This document shows, piece after piece, positions 28,115 to 51,738 of a stretch of DNA of 64,000 nucleotides (the stretch's first letter is position 1; every line of letters starts with the position of its first letter). This stretch comes from an uncultured Flavobacteriaceae bacterium. Its GTDB lineage: Bacteria; Bacteroidota; Bacteroidia; Flavobacteriales; Flavobacteriaceae. Position numbers and translations under genes: made by a program. The notes under the pieces were generated by a model. The model did no database searches. It was not told where the DNA came from and saw nothing but the letters and a program-made list of their open reading frames with translations. The DNA lies in the NCBI GenBank assembly GCA_947504035.1, contig CANNGA010000004.1:186001-250000 (forward strand), written 5' to 3'.

Positions 28115-28429
28115 TTAAGTGACAGTCTCAATAGCCTCCCATAATTGCTCAACAATAGCATTCCAAAGTTTCTCTATAGTAACCGATAAAAGGCCTTTTA
28201 GTGTATTCACAAAGTTGAGAGCCATAGCTTCTAGACCATCTAAAAAAAACGTTTTTAAATCGTCGTCTATATCTCCGTTTAAAATACCTTTTTTAATGAT
28301 TTGTGTTTGCTTTGCAATGGCTTCAATTTGTCTTTCACTAAATCCGTGCACGGTTGCGATGTCTTTTTCGAGTATGTTAGAAGCCACGTCTTTTATAGTA
28401 GCCATAATTTGTAGTACCTGTGCATCCAT
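28115..28429 (-). CDS. Small helical hypothetical protein downstream of the eCIS
   Basis: A 104-residue protein with no signal peptide and no recognised motif. It is mostly amphipathic helix (MDAQVLQIMATIKDVASNIL; later NFVNTLKGLLSVTIEKLWNA). Its start is 4 bases after the lipoprotein gene's stop, so both are made from one message. The C-terminal half could lie on or enter a membrane. A helper of the lipoprotein or of the neighbouring injection system is possible. Confidence 0.7.
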   Translation of the reverse strand: MDAQVLQIMATIKDVASNILEKDIATVHGFSERQIEAIAKQTQIIKKGILNGDIDDDLKTFFLDGLEAMALNFVNTLKGLLSVTIEKLWNAIVEQLWEAIETVT

Positions 28430-28433
28430 ACGA

Positions 28434-28931
28434 TTAACGTTTTAAAAAACTTTCATAGGTTAAGGCTTGGTCAAGGAAAATTTCTATTTGTCCCTTAAAA
28501 GCTTGTATCGCAGTAGGCTTTATGCCTGTAGATTTATCTTTGTTTTTCATTTTTCTTAAGGTTTTCGATAGGGCTTCAAAGGCAAAAGCACTGGGATAGT
28601 CTCCTGAGAGTGTGTTGCCTCTTGTACCTAGCAATTCATTTATTTTTTTGGTGGCAATATGTTTAGGAACAGGACGTGCTTTAGCCTTAATTTTTAAAGC
28701 ATCATAAGCTCCAATTAAATGGTTATAGGTGTCTTCACGTTTTGAAAAATCAGTAGCGGTAGTGCCTTGAGCGACCAGAGCAAAAAAGCGCATAGTAGCT
28801 TCGCTTGTTATGCTTACCGTTTCGACGATTGCTTTATCGTATTCTGGAGCTAAACGTGTTTTGCAACCTGTAATTGTAATGCTCACTATTAGAAAGCATA
28901 ATGGTAATAGCGTTTTTCTTAGTACAAGCAT
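28434..28931 (-). CDS. Hypothetical lipoprotein downstream of the eCIS
   Basis: A 165-residue predicted lipoprotein. Residues 1-22 form a signal peptide with lipobox ITGC; the lipidated Cys is at about 23. The mature part is a largely helical domain with many Lys, containing RPVPKHIATKKINELLGTRG and no catalytic motif. It ends 4 bases before the next small gene and starts about 200 bases after the last gene of the eCIS operon on the same strand. It could be an envelope attachment point or a spanin-like release factor for the particle, but the sequence does not decide. Confidence 0.75.
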   Translation of the reverse strand: MLVLRKTLLPLCFLIVSITITGCKTRLAPEYDKAIVETVSITSEATMRFFALVAQGTTATDFSKREDTYNHLIGAYDALKIKAKARPVPKHIATKKINELLGTRGNTLSGDYPSAFAFEALSKTLRKMKNKDKSTGIKPTAIQAFKGQIEIFLDQALTYESFLKR

Positions 28932-29133
28932 GTCTTGAAATTTGGGTTGGAAATTAGATGTATAAGGAGTAATTTATACTTTGATAATGTTGTTTTTTGG
29001 GGCAAATTACAAAAGTTTTTTCGTTTTAGAAGACCATCAAGAGCTATGTTTTATTACGTTGTAATATTAGAAGTCTTTTGTTGTTTTCCAATATAGTGCA
29101 GTTTGTGACGCATAGGTTTTAGTCTCGAAAAAC

Positions 29134-29373
29134 TTAGGTTTTCCCCCAATTGTTTTTACACAGCTTTACACTCCCTTTTACGATTTTAAGCATAGCCTGT
29201 ATAAAAATGAGAAGTCCGTAGAAGCCCATACCATGTTTCCAATGCAGGGATGTATTGAAGATATTATCTTTATACAGTTGTTCTAAACCAATAACGATTA
29301 GATCTATAGCTATAAAAAGTTGTGTCACGGGGTGTTCTAGAAATTGTTCTAGGTAGGTTATTACTTTTTTCAT
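29134..29373 (-). CDS. Small two-helix membrane protein (eCIS operon end)
   Basis: A 79-residue protein with two probable membrane helices: TQLFIAIDLIVIGLEQLY at about 17-34, and GFYGLLIFIQAMLKIVKG at about 50-67. The ends are basic (KNNWGKT). Size and topology recall small holins, but no family is recognised. It is the last gene of the tightly packed operon, 12 bases after the PAAR-like gene. It may form a pore for release or anchor the system. Confidence 0.75.
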   Translation of the reverse strand: MKKVITYLEQFLEHPVTQLFIAIDLIVIGLEQLYKDNIFNTSLHWKHGMGFYGLLIFIQAMLKIVKGSVKLCKNNWGKT

Positions 29374-29385
29374 GATCTAATAAAG

Positions 29386-29775
29386 CTAACTTAATGTGAC
29401 ATCTTCTTCGCCAGCATCAGAAAATGAGATTTCACCAGCCCATGTACAGGCGCAAGTACTGTTATTATCTAATGCGGTAAGTCCGCCTATAGTGACATCT
29501 GCAATGCCTGGCGACCATGGTGTTACAGTGGCAGGTACACATGGTGCGGGAGTTTGTACGCCATTAGCGGCGGCAGTAGCTGCAATAACAGCAGGATTGG
29601 TTTCTGAAGAGCATTCACCAAAAGACATGATGTTCACCAAAGGGCTATAATCTTCTATAGTCGCAGCAGGCATACTGTCTGCATTAACTTCGTTGGTTGG
29701 TAAAATAGTGAGTGCCGAAGTCGCTGTACCATAAGAACAGCTAAGTGTAGCACCACTACAAGCTAAATTTGCCAT
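29386..29775 (-). CDS. PAAR-like spike tip protein (DUF4280)
   Basis: A 129-residue protein predicted to cap the spike of the injection system, the counterpart of Afp10. The DUF4280 pattern is clear: an N-terminal cysteine-rich strand (ACSGATLSCSYG), VNIMSFGECSSETNP, then TPAPCVPATVTPWSPG, and a C-terminal NNSTCACTWAGEISF. Paired cysteines could bind a metal as in PAAR tips. Unlike Afp, where the tip gene follows the baseplate gp25-like gene, here it comes after the ATPase gene near the operon end. Confidence 0.85.
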   Translation of the reverse strand: MANLACSGATLSCSYGTATSALTILPTNEVNADSMPAATIEDYSPLVNIMSFGECSSETNPAVIAATAAANGVQTPAPCVPATVTPWSPGIADVTIGGLTALDNNSTCACTWAGEISFSDAGEEDVTLS

Positions 29776-29786
29776 AGTTTATAGAT

Positions 29787-31169
29787 TTAATTAAACGTTT
29801 TATTAGATTTCTCGTATTCTTTCTTTATGCCTGTCATGATGGTGGCATAATCAATTTTTTTCTCGCCACTTTGAGCCGCTTTAATAGCACAATACCGCAA
29901 AACATTAATCATTTCGCCTCCAGATAACTCGTATTGAGCAGCAATAGTGTCTATGACCTGAGTTGCATTCTCAATGTCGAAATCTGTACTAAGCAAGTTT
30001 TCCCATAAACGCTTACGTTCTTTGTATTTAGGTTTAGGAAATTTAATGCTATTCTGGAAACGTCTTAAAAAGGCATCGTCGATATTGGTTTGCAAATTTG
30101 TGGCTAATATCACCAAACCATCAAAACTTTCTATGCGTTGCAACAAATAGGCAACTTCTTGATTGGCATGCCTATCGTTAGAGGTGTTGGTGTCGGTACG
30201 TTTACTAAATAGAGCATCGGCTTCATCAAAAAAGAGAATCCAGTGTTTTGCAGCAGCACTATCAAATAAACGGCCTAGGTTTTTTTCGGTTTCACCAATA
30301 TACTTAGAAACCACCATAGATAAATCGATTCGATACACTGGGACATCTATTGTTTTTCCTAATAGGGTAGCCGCTAATGTTTTTCCTGTACCTGGGGGGC
30401 CGTAAAACAAAACACGGTAACCAGGTTTTAGCGTTTTATCCAATGCCCATTCGTTAAGTATAAGGTGGCTGTGGGTAACCCATTGTTTAACGTCTTCTAA
30501 TTGGGTTTTTATACTGCTTTCAAGCACCAAGTCATCCCAAGTCATTTTAGTGAAAATGGCTTTAGCAGGGAATTTAGAGTTGTACTGCGGGCTATAAGTT
30601 TTATTGGTAATAATGATGCCCAAATACTCATCAGATACTTGTAAAGGTTCATGAAGTACTACAGGGTGTTTTGAGGCTTCCAAAACCCCTTCTTTATAAA
30701 GGCTGTTCGATTCATAAATAATTTTCATGAACTCAAGACGAATCTCTATATTGTCGGCACCACCTAATAAAAAACAAACGGTTTCTAAGGTCGGTACAAA
30801 ACCATGCTGTTTGTCGTCTTTAAGACCTCCAAATTCAGAAAATACAGTATCTAAGGACTTGTTTTTAATTAGAAATACATCGAGACTCTGCGGTTTAATA
30901 AGTCTTACCAGTGCCATAACAAGCGTAAGCCGTTCTTCGAAATTTAAATGAAGACGTCTTAGAATTGTCGCGTAACCCGATGTGTCTTCGGGGATAATCT
31001 CTGGAGGAGTTAAAGCTTTAACATTACTGTATTTCTGTTCGTTTTTAAAGTATAAAGCCAGTGCAACTTCTATAATAGCTTCTAACCAGAGCATATCATG
31101 TTGTAAGGTATGGGCGGCAGGCTTATGTATTAAGTTCTCCATATCACTTCTATTAATTGTGTCATCCAA
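29787..31169 (-). CDS. AAA+ ATPase of the contractile injection system (Afp15-like)
   Basis: A 460-residue ATPase. The N-terminal 200 residues are specific to eCIS ATPases. A classical AAA+ module follows: Walker A GPPGTGKT (257-264), Walker B LFFDEAD (312-318), sensor-1 Asn358 in ATNLQ, and arginine fingers at 369-370 (FLRRF). In Afp/PVC systems this protein is needed for particle assembly and is not part of the final particle. Its start overlaps the end of the tape-measure gene by 40 bases. Its presence separates the locus from phage tails and R-type pyocins, which lack it. Confidence 0.95.
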   Translation of the reverse strand: MDDTINRSDMENLIHKPAAHTLQHDMLWLEAIIEVALALYFKNEQKYSNVKALTPPEIIPEDTSGYATILRRLHLNFEERLTLVMALVRLIKPQSLDVFLIKNKSLDTVFSEFGGLKDDKQHGFVPTLETVCFLLGGADNIEIRLEFMKIIYESNSLYKEGVLEASKHPVVLHEPLQVSDEYLGIIITNKTYSPQYNSKFPAKAIFTKMTWDDLVLESSIKTQLEDVKQWVTHSHLILNEWALDKTLKPGYRVLFYGPPGTGKTLAATLLGKTIDVPVYRIDLSMVVSKYIGETEKNLGRLFDSAAAKHWILFFDEADALFSKRTDTNTSNDRHANQEVAYLLQRIESFDGLVILATNLQTNIDDAFLRRFQNSIKFPKPKYKERKRLWENLLSTDFDIENATQVIDTIAAQYELSGGEMINVLRYCAIKAAQSGEKKIDYATIMTGIKKEYEKSNKTFN

Positions 31170-34100
31170 CTTAGTTTTAATTGTGCTATAGACCAGGGAA
31201 TGGTATCTAAGAGCATATCGAAAGAGCGTGCTTCAACGTTTAGAACGTATTTTTGATCTTCAATAGTAATACGACCAGGTCTGCATAAAAAAGACCCTCT
31301 TAAACCCTCTATTGACGTATTTCCTATAGTGGACCAATGCGAAATAATTGCTTTAAGCATACCATCTATTACTGTTTTTTCAGAAGCAGATAATTCAAAC
31401 CTTTCCGGTACTGGGGCATAAATAGGCATACCACAAATGATTTTATTGAGAATTAAATCCTGTTCTTGAGCGCTTACATTACCAGTGGCGGCATATTGTA
31501 AAGCATATAGTGCCTTATACAGACAGCTGTCGCTTACAAAAGTACCGTTGTTTAGAAGTTGCATACGATCGAACAACATAGGGATATAAGGTGCTATGAT
31601 AATTAGACCCGCATTTTCAATAAAAATGGCGTCTCCGATGGTGTCCTCTTCTTCTCTAGTTTCTGGCATAAGCTGCTCTGCTTTTAGAGCTGTTGTATCT
31701 AGATCTAATAAAGGGTGCAAATGTGTAGCTATACTTGGTAATAGTTGCTGTGTTGTATCTAATAGCGTTTTAAAAAAGCTGCGTTTCGAAGGGAAGGCAG
31801 GTACTTTATGTAGACTTTCATAAAAAATTGCAGTCCAGGTGTGTACGGTTCTATGGTGTTGTGCTTGTATGGCGCTATTTAAAAATAACTTATCTATAAA
31901 ACGAATCCAAATGTGCTGGTAGGCTTTCGCATTCAATGCGGTTCGAAGTGCTTTAAAGAGTTCAAAAAAACGAAGTAGCATATGGTGATCAGCTATTGGA
32001 AACACTAGGGTTAAAGCACGCTTTTGGGCACTAAAATTTAAGCGCTCTATAAGCTGTTTTCTAAATGAAATCTGTTTTAAATAAAAATACAGAAGTTCTG
32101 GCTGCGTTGTAGAGAGCGTATTTAAATCTTCAATAAGTATTTTGCTATTTACAGTGTTAATAGCAGTACTCCAACTACGTGTAGTTTGAAGTTGTGTCAT
32201 GCTATTTTGAAGTGTTGTAAGTGGCGAGATTACCTGATTAGAAAGCCATATTATTAACGCTTTATGATGTTGTGAATCTGCATGATACGCTTTTAAACGT
32301 TCTAGGAGCAACTGTTCCACATGGTGTTTCGCACACTTAAAAGCTTTAGTGACCTGTTGTAAAAAACGTTGTGTTAACTGTACGCTATCTACTGAGGGTG
32401 TTTTTAAAACGGTTTTTAATAGATCTAATTTTAAAGCCGTGTAAAAAGCTGGTGGAATTTGTGCCAGTCCAGAGAGGTCTCCTTTTAAAAGTGAGACGAA
32501 GAGGTCATGTGTAGCTATAGTGGGTAGTGCAGCGACAGATTGTATATGACTAAGCATACTGTTAAAGGTAGGTGTATCTAACTGAGTAACGAAATGGTTT
32601 TGGTATTGTGCTGTTTTAAAGTGGGCAATTAGTAGTTCAGGAAACACATCTAAAGCGGTTCTAATGCTGTATTGAAAAGTCGCAATTGACTTTGAAGTTG
32701 CCCACCACGGCAATTTACCATGATTCATATAGTAGATAGAAAGTTCTATAGCATAAACATTAGAGTTGGCGTGTGGCGCTGTTGTATTGTTTGTATTTGG
32801 TATGAGTTTTAAAAACGTAAAGAGCCCTTCTGGAACTTTCCATTCGGTTTGCATGTTTTTAAATGTACTGATAATGGTTGTTTCCGAAACCTTAAATGTT
32901 TTAGAAAAGGCCGCAATGTTTTGAGCAATGCAGGTACTTAAGTCTTCTATGTCACGCTTAAAAAAGGCATTAAGTAACGTGTTTAAGAGCTGTTTATAGT
33001 TGCTTTTAGAACTATTGTTTTTGGCTTTAGGCAGCGCCTTAAACGCATAGCTGTCTTTAGACTGTAATCTCTTTTTAGCATGCAAAATAACCGCCTTAAG
33101 TTTGGGGTCTACAACTAATAATGTTGCGATATGTTCCGTTTCATTTAAAAGCGTATGTGTGTCTTTACCTTTTGCTTCCACAGCGATAAGCCGTAATACC
33201 AGCCACTCGCTTAGTGTCTCTAAAGCAGCTAGTTTATGTTGTGAATAGCGTTCTACTAAAGCTAAAGTTAATTTAAAAGTAGTACTGTTATAGTAGCGGC
33301 ACGGCCTTAATAACCTCTCAAATTCGGCTTGGGTTAATACCTTAACACCTTGGTAGTACGAATGTAAAGCCTTAGCGTGAGCTGTTAAATGTGTTGAATA
33401 CTGTTCTAACTTTGGGACATAAGGTTGAAGTGCTTTTAACGTATCCAGATGTTTTAAAAGACCTTGTTGTGTTTTGTAAGTATCTGTTTTTGTACTATGG
33501 ACTACGGTAAGAATAAAGGGAGCATCAATAGTTATGGTTTTTAAAATTTGGTGTAAAAAGGCGTCTATGCCGTGTGTGGCATGTTCACTATGCTGTCTAT
33601 AAGCGTGTAATGCTAATGTTCCAAATTGAGCATTAAGAGACGTTAGAGTAGAGGAGGTTAGATTTAATGTTATTGCAGAAGCTTTTAAAGCCGTATAAAA
33701 TGCTGTGATAGTTTTAAAAACAGCAAATGGCGCTTGTGTTATGATGTCATAAAGTAGTGGTGCAGGGAAGCGTTTCGTTAGTGCAATGAGACGTTCGGGT
33801 TGTGCTTTGAGGTGTGATAAAAAGAGCGTGAAAAATGCTGTTTTATCATGTACTAAAGCCGTAGCGATTTGTGTGTAAAAATCAGGCTCACGTGTTAGTG
33901 AACTTTGTTCTGGCAATGCATGGTGTTTTAGAAAAAAGTCTAAGGTTTCCAAAAAAGGAATCGTATCAGCATTTAAGCCATTCTGTGAATTGGTAGGATC
34001 TACTCGAACCTCATCATAAAGGTTTAAAATGTGATGCTCAAAATAGGAAGAAGTAGTTAATGTGTTTTGCTTTGGGGTGATCCCAGATGCGATAGCGCCA

Positions 34101-34879
34101 AGCAAATCTTTATAAGTAAGATTGTAACGTGCTGCTATTTTAGAGATGAGGTATTTTAAAAAATGAGGTCTGTTGGAGTGGTCTTTATTAGTGGTAAGTA
34201 TATAACTAAGTATAAGTTCCCAAACGACTTGTTTAAACAACAATGTACTTGCCGCAAGCATAGGCGCTTGCGCTTGGTAACTTAATAGCTGTTTGCGCGT
34301 TGTATTTATAAATGTTCCTTCGTTTTTTTGAACAGCGTCTACTAGAGCTTCTAAAGCCATATCGCTAAATTGAGAACTTAAGCGTTGCCGTATAGCAGCT
34401 TGCGGTTCTGAGGTTTTGAAATGCTGTACAAGTGCATCTTTATCATCTTGTAGTACTTTTAATAAAAGGTCTTCTGGTGTTAAACCCGTAGTTGAACGCC
34501 AAGGCAAGTAACCATAATTTAGAAAGAAAAGTAATTGCTCTAATTGTACGTGTGTTACAGGCGACCGGTTACCAGTAATCAAGGCGTTGTATACCGTGGT
34601 GTTAGATTTAAAAAAGGCACTAAAATGCGCTTCAATTTTATACGCCAATTCATTTTCAAAGTTAGAAGCCGATAAGGTTCCCAAATCTAATGTAATACGA
34701 TCGTATTGATCGTGGTACTGTGGCGAATGGTGGGCGTCCATAACCTTTGTGAGAATGTTTTGAATCTTATGCTCTTGCAATTGGCTCATTTTAGATTGGT
34801 AAGTGTGGGCTTCACTTTCCTCATCTAGCGTAATCGCGTATTCTAAACGTTTTATGATATGTGTTGTAGCTGCTTTCAA
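31130..34879 (-). CDS. eCIS tape-measure protein (Afp14-like)
   Basis: A very large (1249 aa) helical protein. The first 90 residues hold the conserved opening of this family in Bacteroidota, with MSQLQEHKIQNILTKVMD and DRITLDLGTLSASNFENEL. The rest consists of repeated helical segments, several with the pattern LxFFLxxGxLPWW/R (for example LLFFLNYGYLPWRS and SIYYMNHGKLPWWATS). In contractile injection systems the tape measure sets tube length and lies inside it; its length suggests a long particle, but scaling is uncertain because much of the protein may be removed or folded. It starts 6 bases after the Afp12-like gene. Confidence 0.88.
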   Translation of the reverse strand: MKAATTHIIKRLEYAITLDEESEAHTYQSKMSQLQEHKIQNILTKVMDAHHSPQYHDQYDRITLDLGTLSASNFENELAYKIEAHFSAFFKSNTTVYNALITGNRSPVTHVQLEQLLFFLNYGYLPWRSTTGLTPEDLLLKVLQDDKDALVQHFKTSEPQAAIRQRLSSQFSDMALEALVDAVQKNEGTFINTTRKQLLSYQAQAPMLAASTLLFKQVVWELILSYILTTNKDHSNRPHFLKYLISKIAARYNLTYKDLLGAIASGITPKQNTLTTSSYFEHHILNLYDEVRVDPTNSQNGLNADTIPFLETLDFFLKHHALPEQSSLTREPDFYTQIATALVHDKTAFFTLFLSHLKAQPERLIALTKRFPAPLLYDIITQAPFAVFKTITAFYTALKASAITLNLTSSTLTSLNAQFGTLALHAYRQHSEHATHGIDAFLHQILKTITIDAPFILTVVHSTKTDTYKTQQGLLKHLDTLKALQPYVPKLEQYSTHLTAHAKALHSYYQGVKVLTQAEFERLLRPCRYYNSTTFKLTLALVERYSQHKLAALETLSEWLVLRLIAVEAKGKDTHTLLNETEHIATLLVVDPKLKAVILHAKKRLQSKDSYAFKALPKAKNNSSKSNYKQLLNTLLNAFFKRDIEDLSTCIAQNIAAFSKTFKVSETTIISTFKNMQTEWKVPEGLFTFLKLIPNTNNTTAPHANSNVYAIELSIYYMNHGKLPWWATSKSIATFQYSIRTALDVFPELLIAHFKTAQYQNHFVTQLDTPTFNSMLSHIQSVAALPTIATHDLFVSLLKGDLSGLAQIPPAFYTALKLDLLKTVLKTPSVDSVQLTQRFLQQVTKAFKCAKHHVEQLLLERLKAYHADSQHHKALIIWLSNQVISPLTTLQNSMTQLQTTRSWSTAINTVNSKILIEDLNTLSTTQPELLYFYLKQISFRKQLIERLNFSAQKRALTLVFPIADHHMLLRFFELFKALRTALNAKAYQHIWIRFIDKLFLNSAIQAQHHRTVHTWTAIFYESLHKVPAFPSKRSFFKTLLDTTQQLLPSIATHLHPLLDLDTTALKAEQLMPETREEEDTIGDAIFIENAGLIIIAPYIPMLFDRMQLLNNGTFVSDSCLYKALYALQYAATGNVSAQEQDLILNKIICGMPIYAPVPERFELSASEKTVIDGMLKAIISHWSTIGNTSIEGLRGSFLCRPGRITIEDQKYVLNVEARSFDMLLDTIPWSIAQLKLSWMTQLIEVIWRT

Positions 34880-34885
34880 TACGAA

Positions 34886-42751: not shown

Positions 42752-42753
42752 AT

Positions 42754-44547: not shown

Positions 44548-44550
44548 AAT

Positions 44551-45231
44551 TTATTTTAAAGGAGGAAGGTATAGTGTGGTGCCAGGGGTGATATCTCTAA
44601 AATTAAGGATGTTATTAAAAGTAGCGACTTCCATATAGTAACTGCTATCGCCATATACTTTATAACAAATAAGAGGAAGCGTATCCCCTTCTTTAACTTC
44701 TATGTAATGGGTGAGGTCTGGCGATTGGTTATCGGCTTCGGCAGCGATATCATCGGCAGATATAGCGCCCTCAAAAGCGGTTGTTAATTTGGCTCTTAGG
44801 GGGGTGCCATCACTTTGAAACAGGGTGTATGAGATATTTAAAGACGTAAGTTTACATTTAAAGACTAGAGTACCCCAGGATAACATTAAATAATTGGGTT
44901 CGTGTATGCTACCGTTATAGGTAAAACAGGTACTTTTAAACGTATCTATTTGGTCAGAAACAGGTGTTATGGTTGAGAGTAGACTACTAATGCTACTAGA
45001 ACTTATAGCGCCAGTGGCATCAAAATAAATATCGAAAGATACTTTTTCTGGCGGGGTACCTTTGTACCACACCGAAGTGCCTGGCGATCCTACAGGTTGA
45101 AACTTATTATACTCTATAGTATGTTCATGTGTATACGATGCAGGATTAATTTGCACGGTACAGGTGTCTCCTGTTTTGCTGGAATACTCGTTATCTGAGT
45201 ACGCTATAATTTCCATGAGTTCTTTAGACAT
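44551..45231 (-). CDS. LysM-containing baseplate/tube adaptor (Afp7-like)
   Basis: A 226-residue CIS tube/baseplate protein. The N-terminal 170 residues follow the Afp7-type beta barrel (INPASYTHEHTIEYNK; WYKGTPPEKVSFDIYFD). The C-terminal 50 residues form a LysM-like domain (EVKEGDTLPLICYKVYGDSS; later NFRDITPGTTLYLPPL), as in gp53-like adaptors where it contacts the spike. It lies between the DUF5908 gene (5 bases) and the spike gene (3 bases). Confidence 0.93.
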   Translation of the reverse strand: MSKELMEIIAYSDNEYSSKTGDTCTVQINPASYTHEHTIEYNKFQPVGSPGTSVWYKGTPPEKVSFDIYFDATGAISSSSISSLLSTITPVSDQIDTFKSTCFTYNGSIHEPNYLMLSWGTLVFKCKLTSLNISYTLFQSDGTPLRAKLTTAFEGAISADDIAAEADNQSPDLTHYIEVKEGDTLPLICYKVYGDSSYYMEVATFNNILNFRDITPGTTLYLPPLK

Positions 45232-45236
45232 ATAAC

Positions 45237-45395
45237 TTAACGTTCTTTAAATTTTTGCAATTGTCTTTTAACTTCTTTTTCGCAAAGGCGTTCTACGGTG
45301 GCCTTTAATGCGTTCATATCTATAGCATCGGGTGCTTTGGTAGCCGATGTTTCTATTTTTACTTTCAAGATCAATTCTCTAATTTCTATAGGCAT
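45237..45395 (-). CDS. DUF5908 small eCIS protein (52 aa)
   Basis: A 52-codon gene starting MPIEIRELILKVKIET and ending VKRQLQKFKER, in the exact gap between the second tube gene (4 bases) and the LysM adaptor gene (5 bases). The opening MPIEIREL is characteristic of DUF5908, a tiny protein always found between tube and adaptor genes in eCIS (Afp6 position). Its short N-terminal strand and C-terminal helix may act in spike or tube assembly; the role is not established. It is easily missed because of its size, but codon pattern, spacing and motif all support it. Confidence 0.9.
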   Translation of the reverse strand: MPIEIRELILKVKIETSATKAPDAIDMNALKATVERLCEKEVKRQLQKFKER

Positions 45396-45399
45396 AATG

Positions 45400-45846
45400 T
45401 TAGATAACTAGTGCGTAATCGTAAGCGAGTTCTAAACTTTCTATGAGAATATCATTGGTCATAGAATTTAAAGGAGAAAACTCCCATTTAACGGGCCACG
45501 CATTGATAAAACTCCAATTTTTAATTGGTAAACTGTCTTCATTAAGAAGGCTAACGATAATGGTTTGTGTCACTATTGTGGTTGCTAGTCCTCCTGCAAT
45601 CATAGCTTCACACCATATAGATAGTGCCGAAATACTAGAGGTGACACCGCGTTTCAATACTAAGTTTTGGTATTTTGTACCAGTAGGGACACGATGTTTG
45701 AAACGGTTTTCACCACCTTCGGCGATCTCTTCAATACCCATTTCCATAGACATACCTGATACTTCTTTAAAAGAAGTATCAAGTAAGCCCAATTCTAGTG
45801 GAAATGTGAGTCTAAAATAAAAACCTGGTAAAGGGTAATCACTCAT
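45400..45846 (-). CDS. Second inner-tube protein (Afp5-like)
   Basis: A 148-residue gp19-family tube protein. Conserved parts: PLPGFYFRLTF at the start, then FKEVSGMSMEMGIEEIAEGG, then NLVLKRGVTSS, and a C-terminal NAWPVKWEFSPLNS. It shares fold and length with the first tube protein, encoded 3 bases upstream, but differs clearly in sequence. In Afp and PVC the second tube gene makes the ring that joins tube and baseplate, and its position next to DUF5908 and LysM genes suggests the same here. Confidence 0.93.
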   Translation of the reverse strand: MSDYPLPGFYFRLTFPLELGLLDTSFKEVSGMSMEMGIEEIAEGGENRFKHRVPTGTKYQNLVLKRGVTSSISALSIWCEAMIAGGLATTIVTQTIIVSLLNEDSLPIKNWSFINAWPVKWEFSPLNSMTNDILIESLELAYDYALVI

Positions 45847-45849
45847 AGG

Positions 45850-46311
45850 TTAACCATTTGCTATTGTAATGCCTTCATGAGCAAGCTCTAAAGTTTCTAC
45901 AGCAACTTCATTTGCATCAGACTTTAAGTCTGTTGCTGTAATTTTAGTAGGCCATGCATTCGATAAAGACCATGTCATTGTTGGTGCACCAGATTCATCA
46001 AGTAGTTTTATAACTACCGTTTCTCTTTTTATGGTATTCATTTTTATTGCATTGTACCATTTCCAAAAATTATTGTCTTTAATAAAAACACCTTTTTTAA
46101 GTGTTACGTTACTAAACTTTGCCAAGCCAGGCATTTTAATAGTACTAAATGTTTTGCTATCGCCGTGTCTGTATTCCACAACTTGTGTTTCGGTATCTAA
46201 ACCAGATATTTCTTGAAAAGAGGCCGTATTATCCTGTGAGCCTAAGCTTACCGAAAAATAAAACTTAGTTAACGGCCATGTAGCACCTTGTGCTGATCCA
46301 TCATCTGCCAT
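45850..46311 (-). CDS. Major inner-tube protein (Afp1-like)
   Basis: A 153-residue gp19/Hcp-like tube subunit, expected to form most of the inner tube. Conserved parts: WPLTKFYFSVSLG near the N-terminus, FQEISGLDTETQVVEYRHGD, VTLKKGVFIKDNNFWKWYN, and NAWPTKITATDLKSDANEVA at the C-terminus. A 104-base gap separates it from the sheath gene, the longest within the operon. It ends in an A/T-rich leader (AAAAATATATAATT) before the ATG. That would allow extra promoter or translation signals for this abundant subunit. Confidence 0.94.
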   Translation of the reverse strand: MADDGSAQGATWPLTKFYFSVSLGSQDNTASFQEISGLDTETQVVEYRHGDSKTFSTIKMPGLAKFSNVTLKKGVFIKDNNFWKWYNAIKMNTIKRETVVIKLLDESGAPTMTWSLSNAWPTKITATDLKSDANEVAVETLELAHEGITIANG

Positions 46312-46415
46312 AATTATATATTTTTAAAGTGTATTAATTAATTTTTAAGTGTTGTTTGCGTTGTCATTTCACAATAAAAACAGGGTTTAAACTGTGCCTA
46401 TCAACGAAAACGGAA

Positions 46416-48077
46416 TTATGCTTTTTGCATTTCTTGTTGGAATGTAATTTCAATGAATTCCGCAGGATGTGATACGGCAACTTTAACCGCTACAATCATA
46501 CGTCCATTAAGGATATCATCTCCAGTCATAGTACTTCCTAAGCCAACAGTTACAGAAAATGCATCTCCAGGTTTGGGGCCTACTAAGCCTCCTTGATTCC
46601 ATAAGCCTAATAGAAAGTTACTAATCATACTTTTTACAGAAACCCATGTATTGGCATCGTTGGGAGTAAAGACATAAGCACTTGCAGCTTCTTTTACAGA
46701 TTGTTCAATATAAATTAGGGTACGTCTTACATTAATGTATCTCCAGTCGTTAGAGTTTCCATCTAAGGTTCTAGCCCCCCATACCAATACGCCTTTTCCT
46801 GGAAAAGAGCGAATAGCACATACCGATTTACCATCTAATGGCATGTTGAGGTCTTCCTGAGCTTTTAAATCGATTTTAATAGCAGGGGAGACAACAGCTT
46901 GCACGCCTACATTAGCAGGAGCAACCCATACGCCTTCATTATTATCTACAGTGGTATAAATACCAGCCATAGCAGCACTAGGAGTCATTAAATTGAGTTG
47001 TTCTAAAAGGTGCTTAAATAGTAATTTGTAAGTACTACTTAAATTTTTAAGTACAGCATCTGCTTTTTCTGGTGTTATACCATCTGCAGCAGGTTTAGGC
47101 GCAAATAATGCTGTGATGTATTTTGAAATAGGATTAGGTACAGAACTTTTTGTTTTAGGATCTATAACGCTAGGAAACTCTGCGTTTAATAAGGTTTTAA
47201 CAGCAGTGTAACTTGAAGAAGCAATATTTTTATAAGAAATGTCTGTTAATTGGTTCACGGTAGTATGCAACCAAGGGTAATATGCAGCCGCATAGCTGTT
47301 AAATTTAGGGAGTGTTGGTTCTACTGCATTTCTAAAACCTTCTACGCTTGTAGTGCCTACTAACGGTTCGCTGTAGCCTCCAGGGATATCGATAAGAGCG
47401 ACTCTAGTGGCCAATTCGCCACAATGATTAATCATTTCACCTTGCAGGGTATAGCACAGTGCATATTTTTTAGCCAGTTCTGTTTCGGTAGGGTCGCTAA
47501 GTTCTACAGCATCTGGTATAAGAATCATGGTAGGCTCTGTTTCTTTTTCTAAAACCGTTAGCGCATCTGTAAATGGCGTTGTGCTTGTTAAACCAGTCAT
47601 GGTATAATCGTAACCTCCAGTAGATACGATGTAACAAGTTCCTCCTCCATTTTCGTAAAAGAAACGTACGGCGCTGTATAATCTATAATTTACAGTGGTG
47701 GTATTAAGACTGTAACCTGTGGCTCCTACATAAAAATCGGCGATTTTAGTTGGCGCTGTACTAGCGGCAGGAGCAGTGGGTTTGCTGCTGTCTGCTGGTT
47801 TCTTTTTAGATGCATCTGCTGCTGCAGGCTTGGCTGCTGGTGTAATTGCATCTACGCTAAATTGAATTTGTGGCGGTGTGCTGCCAAAAATAGCGTTAAA
47901 CTCTGCTAAAGAGGTCACTCTTACGGCTTTGTTTACTAAATCTTTACCATTGTAGCTCGTTTGTCCTGTATATCCGATAAAGGCCGGAATTGCAGTTGGA
48001 ACTGGTACAACGGCATTTCCAAAGGCATCCAATTCTTGGATGTATACCCCTGGTGTTTTCATTGCTGTTACTGACAT
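46416..48077 (-). CDS. Contractile sheath protein (Afp2/3/4-like)
   Basis: A 553-residue sheath subunit. The N-terminus KTPGVYIQELDAFGNAVVPV with AIPAFIGYTG, and the C-terminus GKGVLVWGARTLDGNSNDWR, then YINVRRTLIYIEQSVKEA and SHPAEFIEITFQQEMQK, are the standard tail-sheath signatures. Between them, residues about 80-110 form a linker of almost only Pro, Ala, Lys, Ser and Thr (AAKPAAADASKKKPADSSKP), probably exposed. Only one sheath gene is present, whereas Afp/PVC have three paralogues. It follows an unknown conserved-position gene by 21 bases. Confidence 0.95.
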   Translation of the reverse strand: MSVTAMKTPGVYIQELDAFGNAVVPVPTAIPAFIGYTGQTSYNGKDLVNKAVRVTSLAEFNAIFGSTPPQIQFSVDAITPAAKPAAADASKKKPADSSKPTAPAASTAPTKIADFYVGATGYSLNTTTVNYRLYSAVRFFYENGGGTCYIVSTGGYDYTMTGLTSTTPFTDALTVLEKETEPTMILIPDAVELSDPTETELAKKYALCYTLQGEMINHCGELATRVALIDIPGGYSEPLVGTTSVEGFRNAVEPTLPKFNSYAAAYYPWLHTTVNQLTDISYKNIASSSYTAVKTLLNAEFPSVIDPKTKSSVPNPISKYITALFAPKPAADGITPEKADAVLKNLSSTYKLLFKHLLEQLNLMTPSAAMAGIYTTVDNNEGVWVAPANVGVQAVVSPAIKIDLKAQEDLNMPLDGKSVCAIRSFPGKGVLVWGARTLDGNSNDWRYINVRRTLIYIEQSVKEAASAYVFTPNDANTWVSVKSMISNFLLGLWNQGGLVGPKPGDAFSVTVGLGSTMTGDDILNGRMIVAVKVAVSHPAEFIEITFQQEMQKA

Positions 48078-48098
48078 TCTTCTTAAGTTATTTAAGGG

Positions 48099-49088
48099 TT
48101 AAACATAAATTATGGTTCGAGAATAATAGATATTCTCATTATTTTCTATTGTTTGACGTGTCGCATTGGCTGCGGGTACTGGCAACTTTATATCTTGTTC
48201 TTCTATGGTATCTGAGAATTGATGTGTGTATTGTAGTTTTAAAATGCTATACTGTTGCGGTGCTTTTACAAGTTTTAAGGGCTGTTGCGATACAAATACA
48301 TAAGCCGTTTTGTTTTGAAATAAGGTTTCTGTTTTGGGTTTGTAGAGATCTGGTGCTATTTCTAGACGTTTAAGATTTATTTTTTTGTCCTGTGGTACAA
48401 CGACAAGGTACTCCCAATAGGTGGCTTTAGACTCAAAATGAAGTGTTAGTGCAGGAAGAGTAAGTGTTTTTAAGAGGTCTACGGTATGTTGCATTTGCAG
48501 ATGGACTATGCCAAAACAGCGTTCATGAAGCGGTTCGGTTGTGCCTAAAAAGGACTTGGATAGTTTGCCGTCTAACCATAAATCGTAGCGGCCTGTACCA
48601 AGAGCTCTTAAATCTACCGTTGTACGTGGAGTATTTGCAGTCGATTGTTCAAAGACTGTTGCACCCTGCATGTTTTTTACGCTTAGATGTTGTACGTTTT
48701 TGGTCGTAACAGTAAAGCGTAAGGGGGTGTGCGACACAATAGTAGTAGGGGGTACGACCTCTTCTGTAGAGGGATTACTATTGGTAACGTATATTAAATT
48801 GTCTTGTGTTTTGTTTGAAGGGAGTTTTGTGTAACTGCTAAAGTTGTTATCTGTAGGTATTAATTGCAAGAAAAGATCGCTTGCGGTTTGTAATTCTTGT
48901 GCTATAGATTTAGAGGGACGTACTTTAGCATAGATTAAAAGTTGCTGCTGTTGCAGTTGGCATTTGATGTCAAAATTTTTAAACAGCTTATACGTATCAT
49001 GTGTTGGTACGATATTAAAAACAGGGCATATACTATTAGTAAAGTACTCATGTGTTATAGTAAAGGTAAACCAATGTTGATACGTCAT
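48099..49088 (-). CDS. Unknown protein between terminator and sheath genes of the eCIS
   Basis: A 329-residue protein I do not recognise. It has no signal peptide. The first 90 residues begin with FTFTITHEYFTNSICPVFNI. A Pro/Thr stretch near 108-118 (STEEVVPPTTIVSH) separates them from a beta-rich second half, which includes RTTVDLRALGTGRYDLWLDG. The C-terminus (ENNENIYYSRTIIYV) is beta-like. It starts 2 bases after the DUF4255 gene and ends 21 bases before the sheath gene, so it is part of the operon. A structural or cap-associated role is likely from position only. Confidence 0.75.
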   Translation of the reverse strand: MTYQHWFTFTITHEYFTNSICPVFNIVPTHDTYKLFKNFDIKCQLQQQQLLIYAKVRPSKSIAQELQTASDLFLQLIPTDNNFSSYTKLPSNKTQDNLIYVTNSNPSTEEVVPPTTIVSHTPLRFTVTTKNVQHLSVKNMQGATVFEQSTANTPRTTVDLRALGTGRYDLWLDGKLSKSFLGTTEPLHERCFGIVHLQMQHTVDLLKTLTLPALTLHFESKATYWEYLVVVPQDKKINLKRLEIAPDLYKPKTETLFQNKTAYVFVSQQPLKLVKAPQQYSILKLQYTHQFSDTIEEQDIKLPVPAANATRQTIENNENIYYSRTIIYV

Positions 49089-49090
49089 AA

Positions 49091-49681
49091 TTAGTTATCG
49101 TTTTTAAGAGGGGTTGTTTCGGTGTCTACAGAAATGATACTTGCAATTTCGCTTTGCACACGTTCTTTTTCAATACTTACCATTCTAACCTTATAAAGAA
49201 TTGAAGGCACATATTTGGCGCCTATACCACTCCAAACATGACTGAGTTCTTGTATAGGGACATTATAAATTTCAAAGGTTAAACGCTCTATATATGGGGC
49301 TAATTCTGGATGTGTTTCCGAAGTGAATATTTTATCGGCTTGAAAAACACCTATTACACTAGATAGCATTTTTAAAGCATCCATATAGTTTTCTGAATTG
49401 TAGTTGGCAGAAGCCAAGACATATAGATTAAGATGAACGGGAGGGTTTACTTTATGAAAACCACTTTTGGTAGTATTTCTATAAGGACTTTTATGTTTAA
49501 CCGTTTTCTCATGTTCTAGATTGATGATGGAAAGGACTATTTTATTTTCGATATTTTTAGTGATACTGCCATCCAAATTAATAAGGCTTCCTACAACCAC
49601 AGTATCATCTGTAAGTCCAAAGGCCATTTTAAGTTCTTTGTTTAGTAGATTACTGATGAATAAAAGTGCTTTTTCTAACAT
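49091..49681 (-). CDS. DUF4255 tube-terminator protein (Afp16-like)
   Basis: A 196-residue DUF4255 protein. It opens with MLEKALLFISNLLNKEL, has VVVGSLINLDG, NPPVHLNLYVLASANY and a conserved middle part (YMDALKMLSSVIGVFQ), and ends with charged residues. In Afp and PVC the homologue caps the growing tube and sheath and limits their length. In most eCIS it is at the 3' end of the cluster, but here it comes in third position, before the sheath. It overlaps nothing and starts 4 bases after the small membrane-protein gene. Confidence 0.9.
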   Translation of the reverse strand: MLEKALLFISNLLNKELKMAFGLTDDTVVVGSLINLDGSITKNIENKIVLSIINLEHEKTVKHKSPYRNTTKSGFHKVNPPVHLNLYVLASANYNSENYMDALKMLSSVIGVFQADKIFTSETHPELAPYIERLTFEIYNVPIQELSHVWSGIGAKYVPSILYKVRMVSIEKERVQSEIASIISVDTETTPLKNDN

Positions 49682-49685
49682 GATT

Positions 49686-50009
49686 TTATGATTTACTGCC
49701 TAATTGCGTTTTAAGAGCGCCTGTTACGAGCCTAGAAAAATAAATACCCGCAACACATAGGGCGTATAGTACTCTAAACGGAGGTTGATTGGGGGTTAAA
49801 ATTGCTGTAATTTCCTCTAAATCTTTAATACGTTCGGCTTCTAATAGTTGCGCATCTGCACTAATAATATATTGTAAAGCAAGCGCTAGAGGAATACTTA
49901 TGGCCATTATAAGTAGTACCGATAAGAATTCTTTAGCGACCGCTTTTTTTATACTGGCAACTAACTTTTTAAGCGCGCCTGCATTCTTTTTTGCGTTTTT
50001 TGTATCCAT
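49686..50009 (-). CDS. Small two-helix membrane protein (eCIS operon start)
   Basis: A 107-residue protein with a Lys-rich N-terminus (MDTKNAKKNAGALKKLV) followed by two probable membrane helices: FLSVLLIMAISIPLALALQY (about 28-47) and VLYALCVAGIYFSRLVTGAL (about 80-99). A short acidic segment lies between. The topology recalls small holins or an anchor, with no family recognised. It lies 13 bases after the GH18 gene and 4 bases before the DUF4255 gene, so it is firmly in the operon. Confidence 0.78.
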   Translation of the reverse strand: MDTKNAKKNAGALKKLVASIKKAVAKEFLSVLLIMAISIPLALALQYIISADAQLLEAERIKDLEEITAILTPNQPPFRVLYALCVAGIYFSRLVTGALKTQLGSKS

Positions 50010-50022
50010 CGTTAGGTCAGCC

Positions 50023-51738
50023 TTAAGGCAAATCTTTTTGTTTTTCTTGTATGTACTTGTTCACAAAGTAATATGTAAATGCACCAGCTATAAATCCTAT
50101 AATTAATAGAACAAGACCATCGTTTATCCAGTTCAGCATTCTAAAAATGACAACAATGCTTATTAAAACGCCTGTAATGTAATAGGCTTTTATTGTGTTG
50201 TCGTTAAAGAGTTTATTACGTGTATTAGGGGATAGTATGGCGATGATAAAACCTAAGCCGGCAAAACATAATAGAAAACACATGGTATATAGTAAAATGG
50301 TTTTGTAATTAGTGATAGATACTAATTTGGCTTCCGTTTTATTTATTTTACCATCAGGGTCTGCCAAGCCTAAGGTTTTGACAATGCTAGAGATAATAGA
50401 ATTTTTAGAGGTACTGTCTTTAGCTGTTGTTGCGGTATCTATAGGTTTTGCCATTTCTTTGCGAATCACATCCCATATTTCGGTGTATCCTTTGTCGTAC
50501 CCAAGTGCCCACAAGCCTAATCCTTTAAGTTTTTTAGTTTTAATGAGTTGAGTTTTATAGACAAAACTAGAGTCGTTTTCATACCAACATTGCCTGTATG
50601 TTGTAGGTTTTCCTTTTAGAGCATAAGCGTTATAAGCACTTTTACTTATAGGGTCTATATAGGTGGTCTCGTTGTTTTCTATAGCCGATTTTATGTAGCT
50701 TAAGGTTCTTGCGCCTACATATGTCTTTACCTTAGATTTGATATCTAAATTTTGTGTTTCCCAAACGGTTCCATAGATGGGCAAAGCCAAAATAATTTTG
50801 CTGCTAGGAATTCCGCTTTGTATGTAATAATCTACGGAGTTGGTAAGGTTATAAGGCTCCCATGTTTTTCCACTTTTTAAGGGGGCAACTGGGCCGGCTA
50901 CTTTGCTAGGTTTGCCATAATAGTCATAGCCCATTATGATAAAGCGATGTACGGCCTGTTCTATCGCTTTAAAGTCTATAGCTTGTGCCCAGTTTACACT
51001 GGGTACAGTAACATAAATTTTATAGTTGCTATTGGCAGCTTTTAAACGGTTAGACAGGGTGATAAGAAAACTGGTGTAATCACTTTTTGAACTTTTAGGA
51101 ACACCTTCAAAATCAATACAAACCCCATCTGCATTACGTTTATTAAGTAGTGTTATAAGGTTGGTCGTAAGTACATCTACGGCCTCTTTATTTTTTAAGA
51201 ATTCAGAATTATTATGTTGCCCGAAGTTGCTTACTGTAAGTAACAGTTCTTTATTGGGGTGCTTTCTAATAGCATCTACTAAGGCTGTGGTTTCCCAATC
51301 ATGTACAGTATTGGGATGGCCTGTTTTGGGGTTCACTTCATAAGAGAAGTAAGCAACAGTCGTTAGCAGTGAAAAATTAAGCTGTTTGTAATAGTCTTTT
51401 TCCCAATGGGGATAAAAACCAAAGACTTCGTAGTCCAGTTCGAAATTTTCAGGAACACTTATGGTAACAAGTGTTACAGAATCTAAACCTGTACTAAAGG
51501 TAGGGACTTTGTCTCTTTTAAGCTGCCTATGATGTTCATGTATAAACGTATGTGCTTGTTTAACGGAATCGTTATGATGAAATATGCTTTTCAAAATTTT
51601 AGCAAACTTCTTTCCGCCTTTAAGCAACTTTGTACTATCCTCAACAGGAGTTGCTGTTTTTATATTAGTTGCTGCGCTTAGGTTGGTTGAAACAGCAAAA
51701 AACATAAAAACAGTAAAAATTACAGTTTTATGACTCAC
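50023..51738 (-). CDS. GH18 family protein with membrane tail (first eCIS operon gene)
   Basis: A 571-residue protein starting with GTG at 51738; the next ATG would cut the signal peptide. Residues 1-23 form the signal peptide. The GH18 domain spans about 100-435: HWEKDYYKQL, the active-site strand DGVCIDFEG (204-212, catalytic Glu211, with Cys207 where the family usually has Asp), FIIMGYDYYG, and LGLWALGYDKGYTEIWDVI. Three hydrophobic helices end the protein (about 479-502, 519-535, 541-559). The form is that of YaaH/SleL-like peptidoglycan-active enzymes rather than secreted chitinases. It is the first gene of the eCIS operon, so a role in wall opening, anchoring or release is plausible; the Cys change leaves activity open. 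Confidence 0.88.
   Translation of the reverse strand: MSHKTVIFTVFMFFAVSTNLSAATNIKTATPVEDSTKLLKGGKKFAKILKSIFHHNDSVKQAHTFIHEHHRQLKRDKVPTFSTGLDSVTLVTISVPENFELDYEVFGFYPHWEKDYYKQLNFSLLTTVAYFSYEVNPKTGHPNTVHDWETTALVDAIRKHPNKELLLTVSNFGQHNNSEFLKNKEAVDVLTTNLITLLNKRNADGVCIDFEGVPKSSKSDYTSFLITLSNRLKAANSNYKIYVTVPSVNWAQAIDFKAIEQAVHRFIIMGYDYYGKPSKVAGPVAPLKSGKTWEPYNLTNSVDYYIQSGIPSSKIILALPIYGTVWETQNLDIKSKVKTYVGARTLSYIKSAIENNETTYIDPISKSAYNAYALKGKPTTYRQCWYENDSSFVYKTQLIKTKKLKGLGLWALGYDKGYTEIWDVIRKEMAKPIDTATTAKDSTSKNSIISSIVKTLGLADPDGKINKTEAKLVSITNYKTILLYTMCFLLCFAGLGFIIAILSPNTRNKLFNDNTIKAYYITGVLISIVVIFRMLNWINDGLVLLIIGFIAGAFTYYFVNKYIQEKQKDLP

What the first reader, a model, noticed from the sequence alone, without database searches (positions are those of the whole stretch)
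28115..51738. Complete contractile injection system operon in a Bacteroidota genome
Eighteen genes on one strand, with gaps of 2-104 bases and one 40-base overlap, encode sheath, two tubes, DUF5908, LysM adaptor, VgrG spike, gp25, gpJ, Afp12, tape measure, AAA+ ATPase, DUF4255 terminator and DUF4280 tip. This set defines eCIS (Afp/PVC/MAC/AlgoCIS relatives). The order differs from Afp: terminator before the sheath, tip after the ATPase, one sheath gene instead of three. No toxin domain is visible among the operon genes, so the cargo and target are open.
Basis: partly seen in the sequence, partly recalled or inferred. Interest (0 to 1): 0.8.

Follow-up and report, generated by a model that had tools for sequence, protein, structure and literature searches.

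The report
Contractile injection operon with membrane hydrolase
This bacterium carries a complete set of genes for a spring-loaded protein syringe, and here and in its close relatives the set starts with a membrane-embedded sugar-cutting-type enzyme that may hold the syringe to the cell's own membrane, which would make it a cell-bound device rather than a released particle.

Summary
The operon is real: 18 packed minus-strand genes (51738 to 29134) plus two after a 202-base gap. It is a contractile injection system of the AlgoCIS/tCIS kind; its order, odd against Afp, is ordinary among Bacteroidota relatives. Three things were missed. (1) Genes 1 and 2 encode a membrane protein with a GH18 domain and a small two-helix membrane protein. 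They head the operon in 24 of 26 named loci of this sheath clade; the other two show no baseplate either. (2) The 254-aa gene is a short tail fibre related to Cis13 of tCIS, with a head as conserved as the sheath. In 299 family genomes, all 11 CIS genomes with an intact fibre carry the GH18 gene; of the other 35, one does. (3) Two DUF4157 cargo candidates lie elsewhere in the genome. The GH18 active site is intact in 25 of 25 close proteins but broken in 6 of 12 distant ones that keep the membrane layout; 35 of these 37 end in proline. Best reading: the pair docks the particle at the producer's inner membrane (0.48); producer lysis and release is the main rival (0.27). No structure or experiment tests this.

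The parts
50023..51738 (-). GH18 membrane protein, first gene: signal-like N-terminus, GH18 domain (residues 105-415), linker, about three C-terminal membrane segments, C-terminal proline
   Evidence: Pfam Glyco_hydro_18 8.7e-36; best solved relative YdhD 3cz8 1.2e-17; hydropathy peaks; D209/E211 invariant in 25 of 25 aligned proteins, window included
49686..50009 (-). small membrane protein (M107), Lys-rich N-terminal helix and two hydrophobic stretches (one passes the hydropathy threshold)
   Evidence: no family hit of weight; next to GH18 in the 24 named loci that have GH18 (plus L081 read by eye); alignment A4
49091..49681 (-). cap / tube terminator (Alg16A, Pvc16_N)
   Evidence: Pvc16_N 2.7e-34
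48099..49088 (-). cap adaptor (Alg16B-like)
   Evidence: SalCis16b chain 9r9n_C, 1.1e-5; position
46416..48077 (-). sheath (single)
   Evidence: Phage_sheath_1C; 9r9h 1.9e-128, AlgoCIS 7adz 1.3e-89, tCIS 7b5h 6.9e-83
45850..46311 (-). inner tube
   Evidence: Phage_T4_gp19 6.1e-50
45400..45846 (-). tube initiator (Alg5-like)
   Evidence: Phage_T4_gp19 2e-38
45237..45395 (-). plug (Alg6-like, DUF5908)
   Evidence: DUF5908 9.9e-10
44551..45231 (-). tube initiator / LysM adaptor (Alg7-like)
   Evidence: CIS_tube 2.1e-49; LysM below cut-off
42754..44547 (-). spike (VgrG/Alg8-like)
   Evidence: Phage_base_V 3.6e-20, Phage_GPD 3.4e-8
42236..42751 (-). sheath initiator gp25 (Alg9-like)
   Evidence: GPW_gp25 1e-22
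38590..42213 (-). baseplate wedge 1 (Alg11/gpJ-like)
   Evidence: 9rce 4.6e-69, All3317 2.7e-49, AlgoCIS 7aeb 6.4e-48
37802..38566 (-). short tail fibre (Fib13): Cis13/All3316-like baseplate anchor, shaft, conserved head
   Evidence: profile vs All3316 4.2e-4, vs Bd2133 2.5e-7; conservation
34886..37756 (-). baseplate wedge 2 (Alg12-like)
   Evidence: Alg12 8.2e-67, All3315 1.2e-59
31130..34879 (-). tape measure, 1249 aa, three CIS_TMP stretches
   Evidence: CIS_TMP 1.7e-105
29787..31169 (-). AAA+ ATPase
   Evidence: AAA 8.5e-29
29386..29775 (-). PAAR-like tip (DUF4280)
   Evidence: DUF4280 2.2e-28
29134..29373 (-). small hydrophobic protein (M79)
   Evidence: homologues after the tip gene in G072 and G198; no family above cut-off
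28434..28931 (-). optional lipoprotein (Lipo165), after a 202-base gap
   Evidence: hydrophobic N-terminus then Gly-Cys (lipobox-like, by eye); homologues; not part of the CIS core
28115..28429 (-). optional helical-looking protein (P104), paired with Lipo165 wherever found here
   Evidence: 7 of 299 family genomes, beside Lipo165 in the stretches read; AtTam9 hit below cut-off

Best explanation
A clade-Ib contractile injection system (kin of AlgoCIS, tCIS and SalCIS) of a distinct subtype in which the particle is probably docked to the producer's own inner membrane. Proposed working: sheath, tube, spike and baseplate assemble in the cytoplasm, loaded with DUF4157 cargo made from two unlinked genes. 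The short fibre (trimeric by analogy) sits on the baseplate by its Cis13-like N-terminus and with its conserved head meets a fixed partner in the same cell. That partner is the complex of the GH18 membrane protein and the small two-helix protein: GH18 domain in the periplasm, on peptidoglycan; Lys-rich helix and C-terminal proline tail in the cytoplasm, facing the baseplate. Firing then drives the tube outward through the own envelope, the GH18 domain binding and, in this subclade, perhaps cutting the wall at the docking site. Shown by computation: homologies, operon order, linkage of GH18, small partner and fibre, conservation pattern, unlinked DUF4157 genes. Inferred: membrane topology, peptidoglycan as ligand, trimer, contact between fibre and GH18 complex, docking, outward firing.
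For: Part of the unit: of 26 named loci in the window's sheath clade, 24 have GH18 and M107 at the operon head; L095 and L116 have neither, and show no baseplate or fibre. None of the four genes on the 5' side of the window operon occurs in those 24 loci, whose view reaches at most about 6 kb upstream. Linkage to the fibre: in 299 family genomes, 14 have Fib13 (E<1e-20), 18 GH18 (E<=1e-40), 12 both; of 46 CIS_TMP genomes the 11 with intact Fib13 all have GH18, of the other 35 one (G019, no C-terminal membrane segments). In 395 phylum genomes 6 of the 7 Fib13 genomes carry GH18 or a diverged GH18-like protein in the cluster; the seventh, G648, matches Fib13 only outside the head (positions 6-129) and shows no GH18 in view. 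Control: ten strong GH18 hits from Fib13-less genomes have no C-terminal membrane segment and no CIS gene in view, 0 of 10. Fibre: N-terminus matches All3316, the tCIS fibre that anchors the particle in the membrane (PMC8894136 passages); head 67.7% mean pairwise identity against sheath 69.6%, spike 54.4%, Alg11-like 46.2%, while eCIS receptor-binding domains are described as rapidly evolving (PMC12923769 abstract). Docking rather than cutting as the constant: 6 of 12 distant relatives (five lineages) have lost catalytic Asp or Glu but keep barrel and membrane segments. Last residue Pro in 25 of 25 close and 10 of 12 distant proteins. Precedents for membrane contact: CisA (PMC12237407), tCIS, T6SSiv.
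Against: The fibre has no membrane helix, unlike Cis13 of Anabaena. The linkage cases share ancestry, so the Fisher value overstates the evidence. Within the window's own subclade the active site is kept in 25 of 25, which fits an enzyme with a job. A published catalogue reads short eBAP2 fibres, with an example from Aquimarina, as receptor binders (PMC12923769 section 10). G113, G569 and G387 have no small two-helix gene next to GH18; G359 and G448 lack the C-terminal Pro. GH18 is common without CIS: 38 of 42 GH18 genomes in the phylum sample have no Fib13, and one of ten control proteins (G650) also ends in Pro.
Confidence: 0.48

Rival explanations
1. Release module: the GH18 protein is a membrane-tethered peptidoglycan hydrolase and M107 (with M79) a holin-like or regulator protein; together they lyse the producer and free ordinary extracellular particles that find targets with the short fibre.
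For: Active-site D209/E211 and M269/Y271 invariant in 25 of 25 close proteins; the single best solved relative is YdhD, named a sporulation-specific glycosylase, although chitinases and other GH18s follow closely; Afp carries a lysis cassette (PMC12961389 passage); AlgoCIS particles are found in supernatant (PMC8894135 passage).
Against: Catalytic residues lost in 6 of 12 distant relatives with the layout kept; about three C-terminal membrane segments and a near-invariant C-terminal Pro, not expected of a lysin; 34 of 35 CIS genomes of the family without the intact fibre have no GH18 hit at E<=1e-40 (a copy as diverged as in G359 would be missed); it is the first gene of the structural operon, not a separate unit.
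Confidence: 0.27
2. Ordinary free eCIS; the short fibre is a receptor binder with a conserved ligand such as a common surface glycan, and GH18/M107 is an accessory that remodels the wall during assembly without docking or lysis.
For: eBAP2 mini-fibres are reported as the most abundant eCIS fibre group, with putative saccharide-binding heads (PMC12923769 section 10); the shaft resembles Bd2133 (recalled to be a Bdellovibrio adhesin); DUF4157 cargo present.
Against: Does not explain why GH18/M107 and this fibre type occur together and hardly with other CIS, nor the loss of catalysis with kept layout.
Confidence: 0.15
3. The GH18 protein is an injected effector rather than part of the machine.
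For: A protein with predicted function 'Chitinase?' (EAT3, Dickeya) is among published eCIS toxins (PMC8213781 passage).
Against: It has a signal-like N-terminus and C-terminal membrane segments, no DUF4157 hit, and heads the operon with M107 in 24 loci; the DUF4157 proteins are better cargo candidates.
Confidence: 0.04

Closest known systems
AlgoCIS of Algoriphagus machipongonensis (clade Ib eCIS; PMC8894135, PMC13314943; passages seen)
   Same: Single sheath, separate cap and cap adaptor, plug, LysM tube protein, Alg11/Alg12 baseplate; chain matches.
   Different: AlgoCIS has the 1443-residue Alg19 fibre and two DUF4157 cargo genes in its cluster; here a 254-aa Cis13-type fibre, GH18/M107 at the head, tip gene after the ATPase, cargo candidates elsewhere. 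The word GH18 does not occur in the AlgoCIS paper.
tCIS of Anabaena PCC 7120 (PMC8894136; passages seen)
   Same: Fibre related at its N-terminal anchor, lying here between the Alg11- and Alg12-like genes as All3316 lies by number between All3315 and All3317; sheath and baseplate matches.
   Different: Cis13 carries its own membrane helix and tCIS has the Cis19 crown; here neither was found, but separate membrane proteins instead.
SalCIS (PDB 9r9h, 9r9i, 9r9n, 9rce)
   Same: Closest solved sheath (1.9e-128), cap adaptor and Alg11-like chain.
   Different: Alg12-like match is weaker (3.5e-29) and that chain shorter (804 aa); no paper found, so its organism, GH18 and fibre content are unknown to me.
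CIS of Streptomyces coelicolor with CisA (PMC12237407; passages seen)
   Same: A membrane protein encoded in the CIS cluster that is needed for firing and proposed to recruit particles to the membrane.
   Different: CisA is single-pass with a cytoplasmic N-terminus and a C-terminal domain likened to substrate-binding domains; not compared by sequence here.
Afp lysis cassette (endopeptidase, holin, lysozyme; PMC12961389 passage)
   Same: Cell-wall-type enzyme plus small membrane protein beside an injection operon.
   Different: Here the enzyme is itself membrane-anchored by prediction, has lost catalytic residues in some relatives, and is part of the structural operon.

Membership tests
Clade Ib contractile injection system | Sheath closest to AlgoCIS/tCIS-type sheaths | tested here: met
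   Top chains SalCIS, AlgoCIS, tCIS; Pvc/Afp and phage lower
Clade Ib contractile injection system | Cap plus separate cap adaptor, DUF5908 plug | tested here: met
Clade Ib contractile injection system | Spike cage domain in the Alg11 homologue | tested here: inconclusive
   Best stretch to SalCIS covers residues 410-1179, to AlgoCIS 673-1139; the cage part was not modelled
eCIS (mode of action) | Particles released into the medium | not testable with these tools
   Needs microscopy or proteomics of supernatant
eCIS (mode of action) | Variable receptor-binding fibre | tested here: inconclusive
   Fibre found but its head is conserved like the sheath
eCIS (mode of action) | DUF4157 (eCIS_core) cargo | tested here: met
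   Two proteins in the genome, both on other contigs than the operon; that they are cargo is inferred
tCIS | Cis13 fibre N-terminal baseplate domain | tested here: met
   Profile E 4.2e-4 over residues 5-40
tCIS | Membrane helix in the fibre | tested here: not met
   No hydrophobic segment in Fib13
tCIS | Cis19 crown / Alg19-type large fibre gene | tested here: not met
   None in the operon; 6-base gap between Alg12-like and TMP genes; elsewhere in the genome not searched
T6SS (types i-iii) | VipB/TssC sheath | tested here: not met
   0 matches in the own genome; control found it in E. coli
Lysis cassette | Active wall hydrolase | tested here: inconclusive
   Active site kept in 25 of 25 close, broken in 6 of 12 distant proteins; activity untested
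Lysis cassette | Holin and spanin | tested here: inconclusive
   Small membrane proteins M107 and M79 have no holin family hit
GH18 | GH18 barrel with DxE catalytic motif | tested here: met
   Glyco_hydro_18 8.7e-36; D209 and E211 present

The most novel reading that the evidence does not exclude
A contact-dependent, envelope-docked contractile injection system that is neither T6SS, eCIS nor tCIS: a GH18-fold membrane protein and a two-helix partner form the docking gate in the producer's inner membrane, the fibre head is the plug for that gate, and the GH18 fold serves as a peptidoglycan grip or hole cutter for outward firing.
Probability: 0.4. Interest if true: 0.85.

Novelty: new variant of a known kind. 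Interest (0 to 1): 0.62.

Why it matters
How closely related injection systems switch between released particle and cell-bound weapon is an open question in this clade. Here a defined subtype, seen in several families of Bacteroidota, carries its own membrane module, in genera with named strains (Flavivirga, Aquimarina), so that the switch can be tested by removing two genes. The near-invariant C-terminal proline and the conserved fibre head give two precise sites to test. It also warns that 'eCIS' labels based on structural genes do not establish release.

Tried and rejected
Rejected: Afp-type reading (sheath and baseplate are nearer AlgoCIS, tCIS and SalCIS); phage tail or T6SS; GH18 as a chance neighbour (it stays with the operon while the genes upstream change). 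AtTam9 hit of P104: below cut-off, no paper found, dropped. IteA hit of the ATPase: AAA core only, far below cut-off. A Bacteroidota promoter motif (recalled) before GH18: a regular-expression scan of 632 bases found none. Lipo165/P104 as CIS core: the pair occurs with no CIS gene in a 10-kb view in G164, G027, G233, G091 and G294, so it is optional. Tape-measure length as a mark of the subtype: G179 and G105 have long ones without GH18. SalCIS paper: not found. Tree: quick search only, SH-aLRT without bootstrap, several long branches.

I also read ten of the eleven strongest GH18 hits without Fib13 (G618 skipped by oversight) and the unread slot of G448.

Rows dropped before counts: G072 and G284 left out of the tree as the same genomes as L076 and L096; G018, G090, G253 and G293 had no sheath long enough in the stretches taken. 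The window's own label in the tree was set by hand. My ORF picker missed M107 in L081; it was found by reading the frame. One search failed for G448 (wrong start in my script) and was repeated.
Full report
What is there. The minus strand from 51738 to 29134 carries 18 densely packed genes, gaps 2-104 bases and one 40-base overlap; two more ORFs follow after 202 bases, within the interval given. Pfam and PDB sequence searches assign cap, cap adaptor, single sheath, two gp19-type tubes, DUF5908 plug, CIS_tube/LysM, spike, gp25, Alg11- and Alg12-like baseplate proteins, tape measure, AAA+ ATPase and DUF4280 tip. In transcription order the operon starts with a GH18 protein and a 107-aa membrane protein, and between the two large baseplate genes lies a 254-aa protein without a Pfam family.

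Which kind. The sheath matches solved CIS sheaths in the order SalCIS 1.9e-128, AlgoCIS 1.3e-89, tCIS 6.9e-83, with Pvc, Afp and phage gp18 lower. Cap, or cap and adaptor, before a single sheath is the usual order in the relatives I annotated; G198 has two sheaths, and G080 and G077 have two extra ORFs between sheath and tube. The place of the tip gene is narrower: a DUF4280-type gene follows the ATPase here and in G284, G198, G090 and G253 (in G072 it follows the tape measure and no ATPase was called), whereas many other relatives have a 95-100-aa ORF after the spike instead.

The GH18 module. A scan of genome contigs with the sheath gave 67 named loci. On a quick sheath tree the window lies in a set of 28 rows with SH-aLRT 100: the window, G198 and 26 named loci. 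In 24 of the 26 (L076-L094, L096-L098, L119, L140) the operon begins GH18 - M107 - cap - adaptor - sheath, the cap not being called in L089, L093 and L094 (M107 of L081 seen). L095 and L116 have no GH18 and also no baseplate or fibre gene in view. The 24 span Flavivirga, Aquimarina, Tenacibaculum, Dokdonia, Altibacter, Crocinitomicaceae, Fluviicola, a Cytophagales and a Bacteroidales MAG. None of four genes on the 5' side of the window operon occurs in their ORFs; the view upstream of GH18 is about 6 kb in most, 1.9 kb in L089 and 0.1 kb in L140, and the 3' side is out of view. Over the 81 tree rows: 27 have both GH18 and fibre, 2 GH18 only and 1 fibre only (their contigs end), 34 are CIS with neither, 17 are sheaths without the Alg11-like gene in view. 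For the named loci among the 34 a GH18 gene more than about 10 kb away would be missed.

Two genome samples. In 299 genomes of the family, CIS_TMP occurs in 46, GH18 at E<=1e-40 in 18, Fib13 at E<1e-20 in 14 (34 at E<=0.001, the rest weak and partial), both in 12; Fisher p 1.9e-15, which ignores shared ancestry. The two Fib13-only genomes (G189, G221) show fragments; G189 is a decayed locus. The 11 CIS_TMP genomes with intact Fib13 all have GH18; of the other 35 only G019 has a hit at that threshold, on another contig than its CIS_TMP hit and without C-terminal membrane segments. In 395 genomes of the phylum, 7 have Fib13 at E<=1e-10. G000, G383, G387 and G569 have GH18 within about 12 kb. G359 and G448, of one genus, have no hit at the threshold, but both carry in the slot before the cap a 578- or 530-aa protein that matches the GH18 profile (1.2e-19 in a one-sequence search; 5.5e-18 for G448 in its stretch), followed by a 92- or 93-aa two-helix protein. 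G648 matches Fib13 only over positions 6-129, in a 669-aa protein, and shows no GH18 from upstream of the cap to the Alg12-like gene. GH18 itself is no mark of CIS: 38 of the 42 GH18 genomes in this sample have no Fib13. I read ten of the eleven strongest of these: none has a C-terminal membrane segment, none has a CIS gene in the 11-20 kb seen, one (G650) ends in Pro, and two of the ten genomes have CIS_TMP on another contig. The other 28 were not read.

What the GH18 protein looks like. Hydropathy shows in most rows an N-terminal signal-like segment and two to three segments at the C-terminus. Asp209, Glu211, Met269 and Tyr271 are invariant in 25 of 25 aligned proteins, window included. The best solved relative is YdhD (1.2e-17); chitinases and other GH18s follow (5e-16 to 9e-14), YaaH has 1.4e-12. 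That peptidoglycan is the substrate is therefore inference. Of 12 further CIS-linked proteins with membrane segments, six keep Asp and Glu (G018, with Lys for Tyr271; G198, G569, G387, G090, G253); G102 and G281 have Asn for Asp, G113 Tyr for Asp, G259 neither, G359 and G448 Gln for Glu. G281's system is itself decaying. The final residue is Pro in all 25 and in 10 of the 12, the exceptions being G359 and G448. A small two-helix protein lies next to GH18 in 9 of the 12, not in G113, G569 and G387. In G018, G102, G113, G569 and G387 the GH18 gene sits elsewhere inside the cluster rather than at its head.

The fibre. The profile of 22 Fib13 proteins matches the N-terminus of All3316 (Cis13 of tCIS) at 4.2e-4 and, over the shaft, Bd2133 at 2.5e-7 (that Bd2133 is a Bdellovibrio adhesin is recalled). 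Mean pairwise identity over the clade is 73.7% for residues 1-50, 53.4% for 51-140, 67.7% for the head 141-254; sheath 69.6%, tube 86.2%, spike 54.4%, GH18 49.2%, cap adaptor 35.8%. A head as stable as the sheath suggests a fixed partner or a universal ligand. The published fibre catalogue (section 10 read, other passages seen) describes eBAP2 mini-fibres as carrying putative saccharide-binding domains and shows one eBAP2 fibre with a C1q fold from Aquimarina; I did not test whether it is this protein.

Cargo. The own genome has two DUF4157 (eCIS_core) matches, on contigs C10 and C5, away from the operon on C4. The ORFs are 601 and 716 aa with no further Pfam family above cut-off. Relatives G072, G090 and G018 have proteins with similar N-terminal parts beside or inside the operon (by eye). 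There is one Pvc16_N match and no VipB match in the genome, so these two are most simply cargo of this system. A study reports 88% of its known toxins within ten genes of the operon (PMC11297309 passage), so the unlinked place is less usual.

Mechanism and rivals. The constant features are a membrane protein with a GH18 fold, usually a small partner, a nearly fixed C-terminal end and a conserved short fibre. The variable feature is catalysis. That favours docking over lysis, with CisA, tCIS and T6SSiv as precedents for membrane contact in related systems (passages seen). It does not prove it, and in the window's own subclade the active site is intact. I put docking at 0.48, release at 0.27, accessory of a free eCIS at 0.15, effector at 0.04.

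Novelty. Searches of the held library for CIS with glycosidase, peptidoglycan, GH18, chitinase or these genera (listings seen) and term searches within six papers showed no description of a GH18 membrane module in a CIS operon. The library lacks most subscription papers and all preprints. I call it a new variant of a known kind.

Noticed in passing
L107, L111, L105, L100, L104, L118, L099, L101, L108, L141; L095; G233 stretch L069: Sheath genes standing without a baseplate in view, some with only cap, tube or a 170-190-aa C-terminal CIS_TMP piece beside them. Function unknown; such short CIS_TMP frames also appear in G206, G045, G195 and G279.
   Followed up: partly
window 28115-28931; L107:8502-9330; L111:11624-12452; L164-L169: A two-gene pair, lipoprotein plus 104-aa protein; the latter is found in 7 of 299 family genomes. 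The pair follows an orphan sheath in two Aequorivita records (L107, L111) and in G254, follows the CIS operon here, and stands without CIS genes in view in five others.
   Followed up: partly
L074:6524-8329 and L075:6087-8237: Two DUF4157 proteins of the own genome with unassigned C-terminal parts; the second has an arrangement that by eye recalls ADP-ribosyltransferases (recalled, no family hit).
   Followed up: partly
window 52307-55421: Divergent from the operon lie a small TPR-like protein, a sensor-kinase-like membrane protein, a small membrane protein and a LytTR-type response regulator (read by eye, no family search); not found beside the operon in 24 relatives.
   Followed up: partly
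G281 (L173, L174) and G189 (L175): CIS loci in decay: Fib13 split by stops or reduced to a fragment, large minus-strand ORFs after the tube gene.
   Followed up: no
L113, L120: Clade Ib CIS in MAGs labelled Bermanella and Paraburkholderia; transfer or wrong binning.
   Followed up: no
G198 (L043, L044); G359 (L160, L177); G448 (L181): Tandem copies of sheath plus tube in G198, and three Tube1-like genes in a row in G359 and G448.
   Followed up: no
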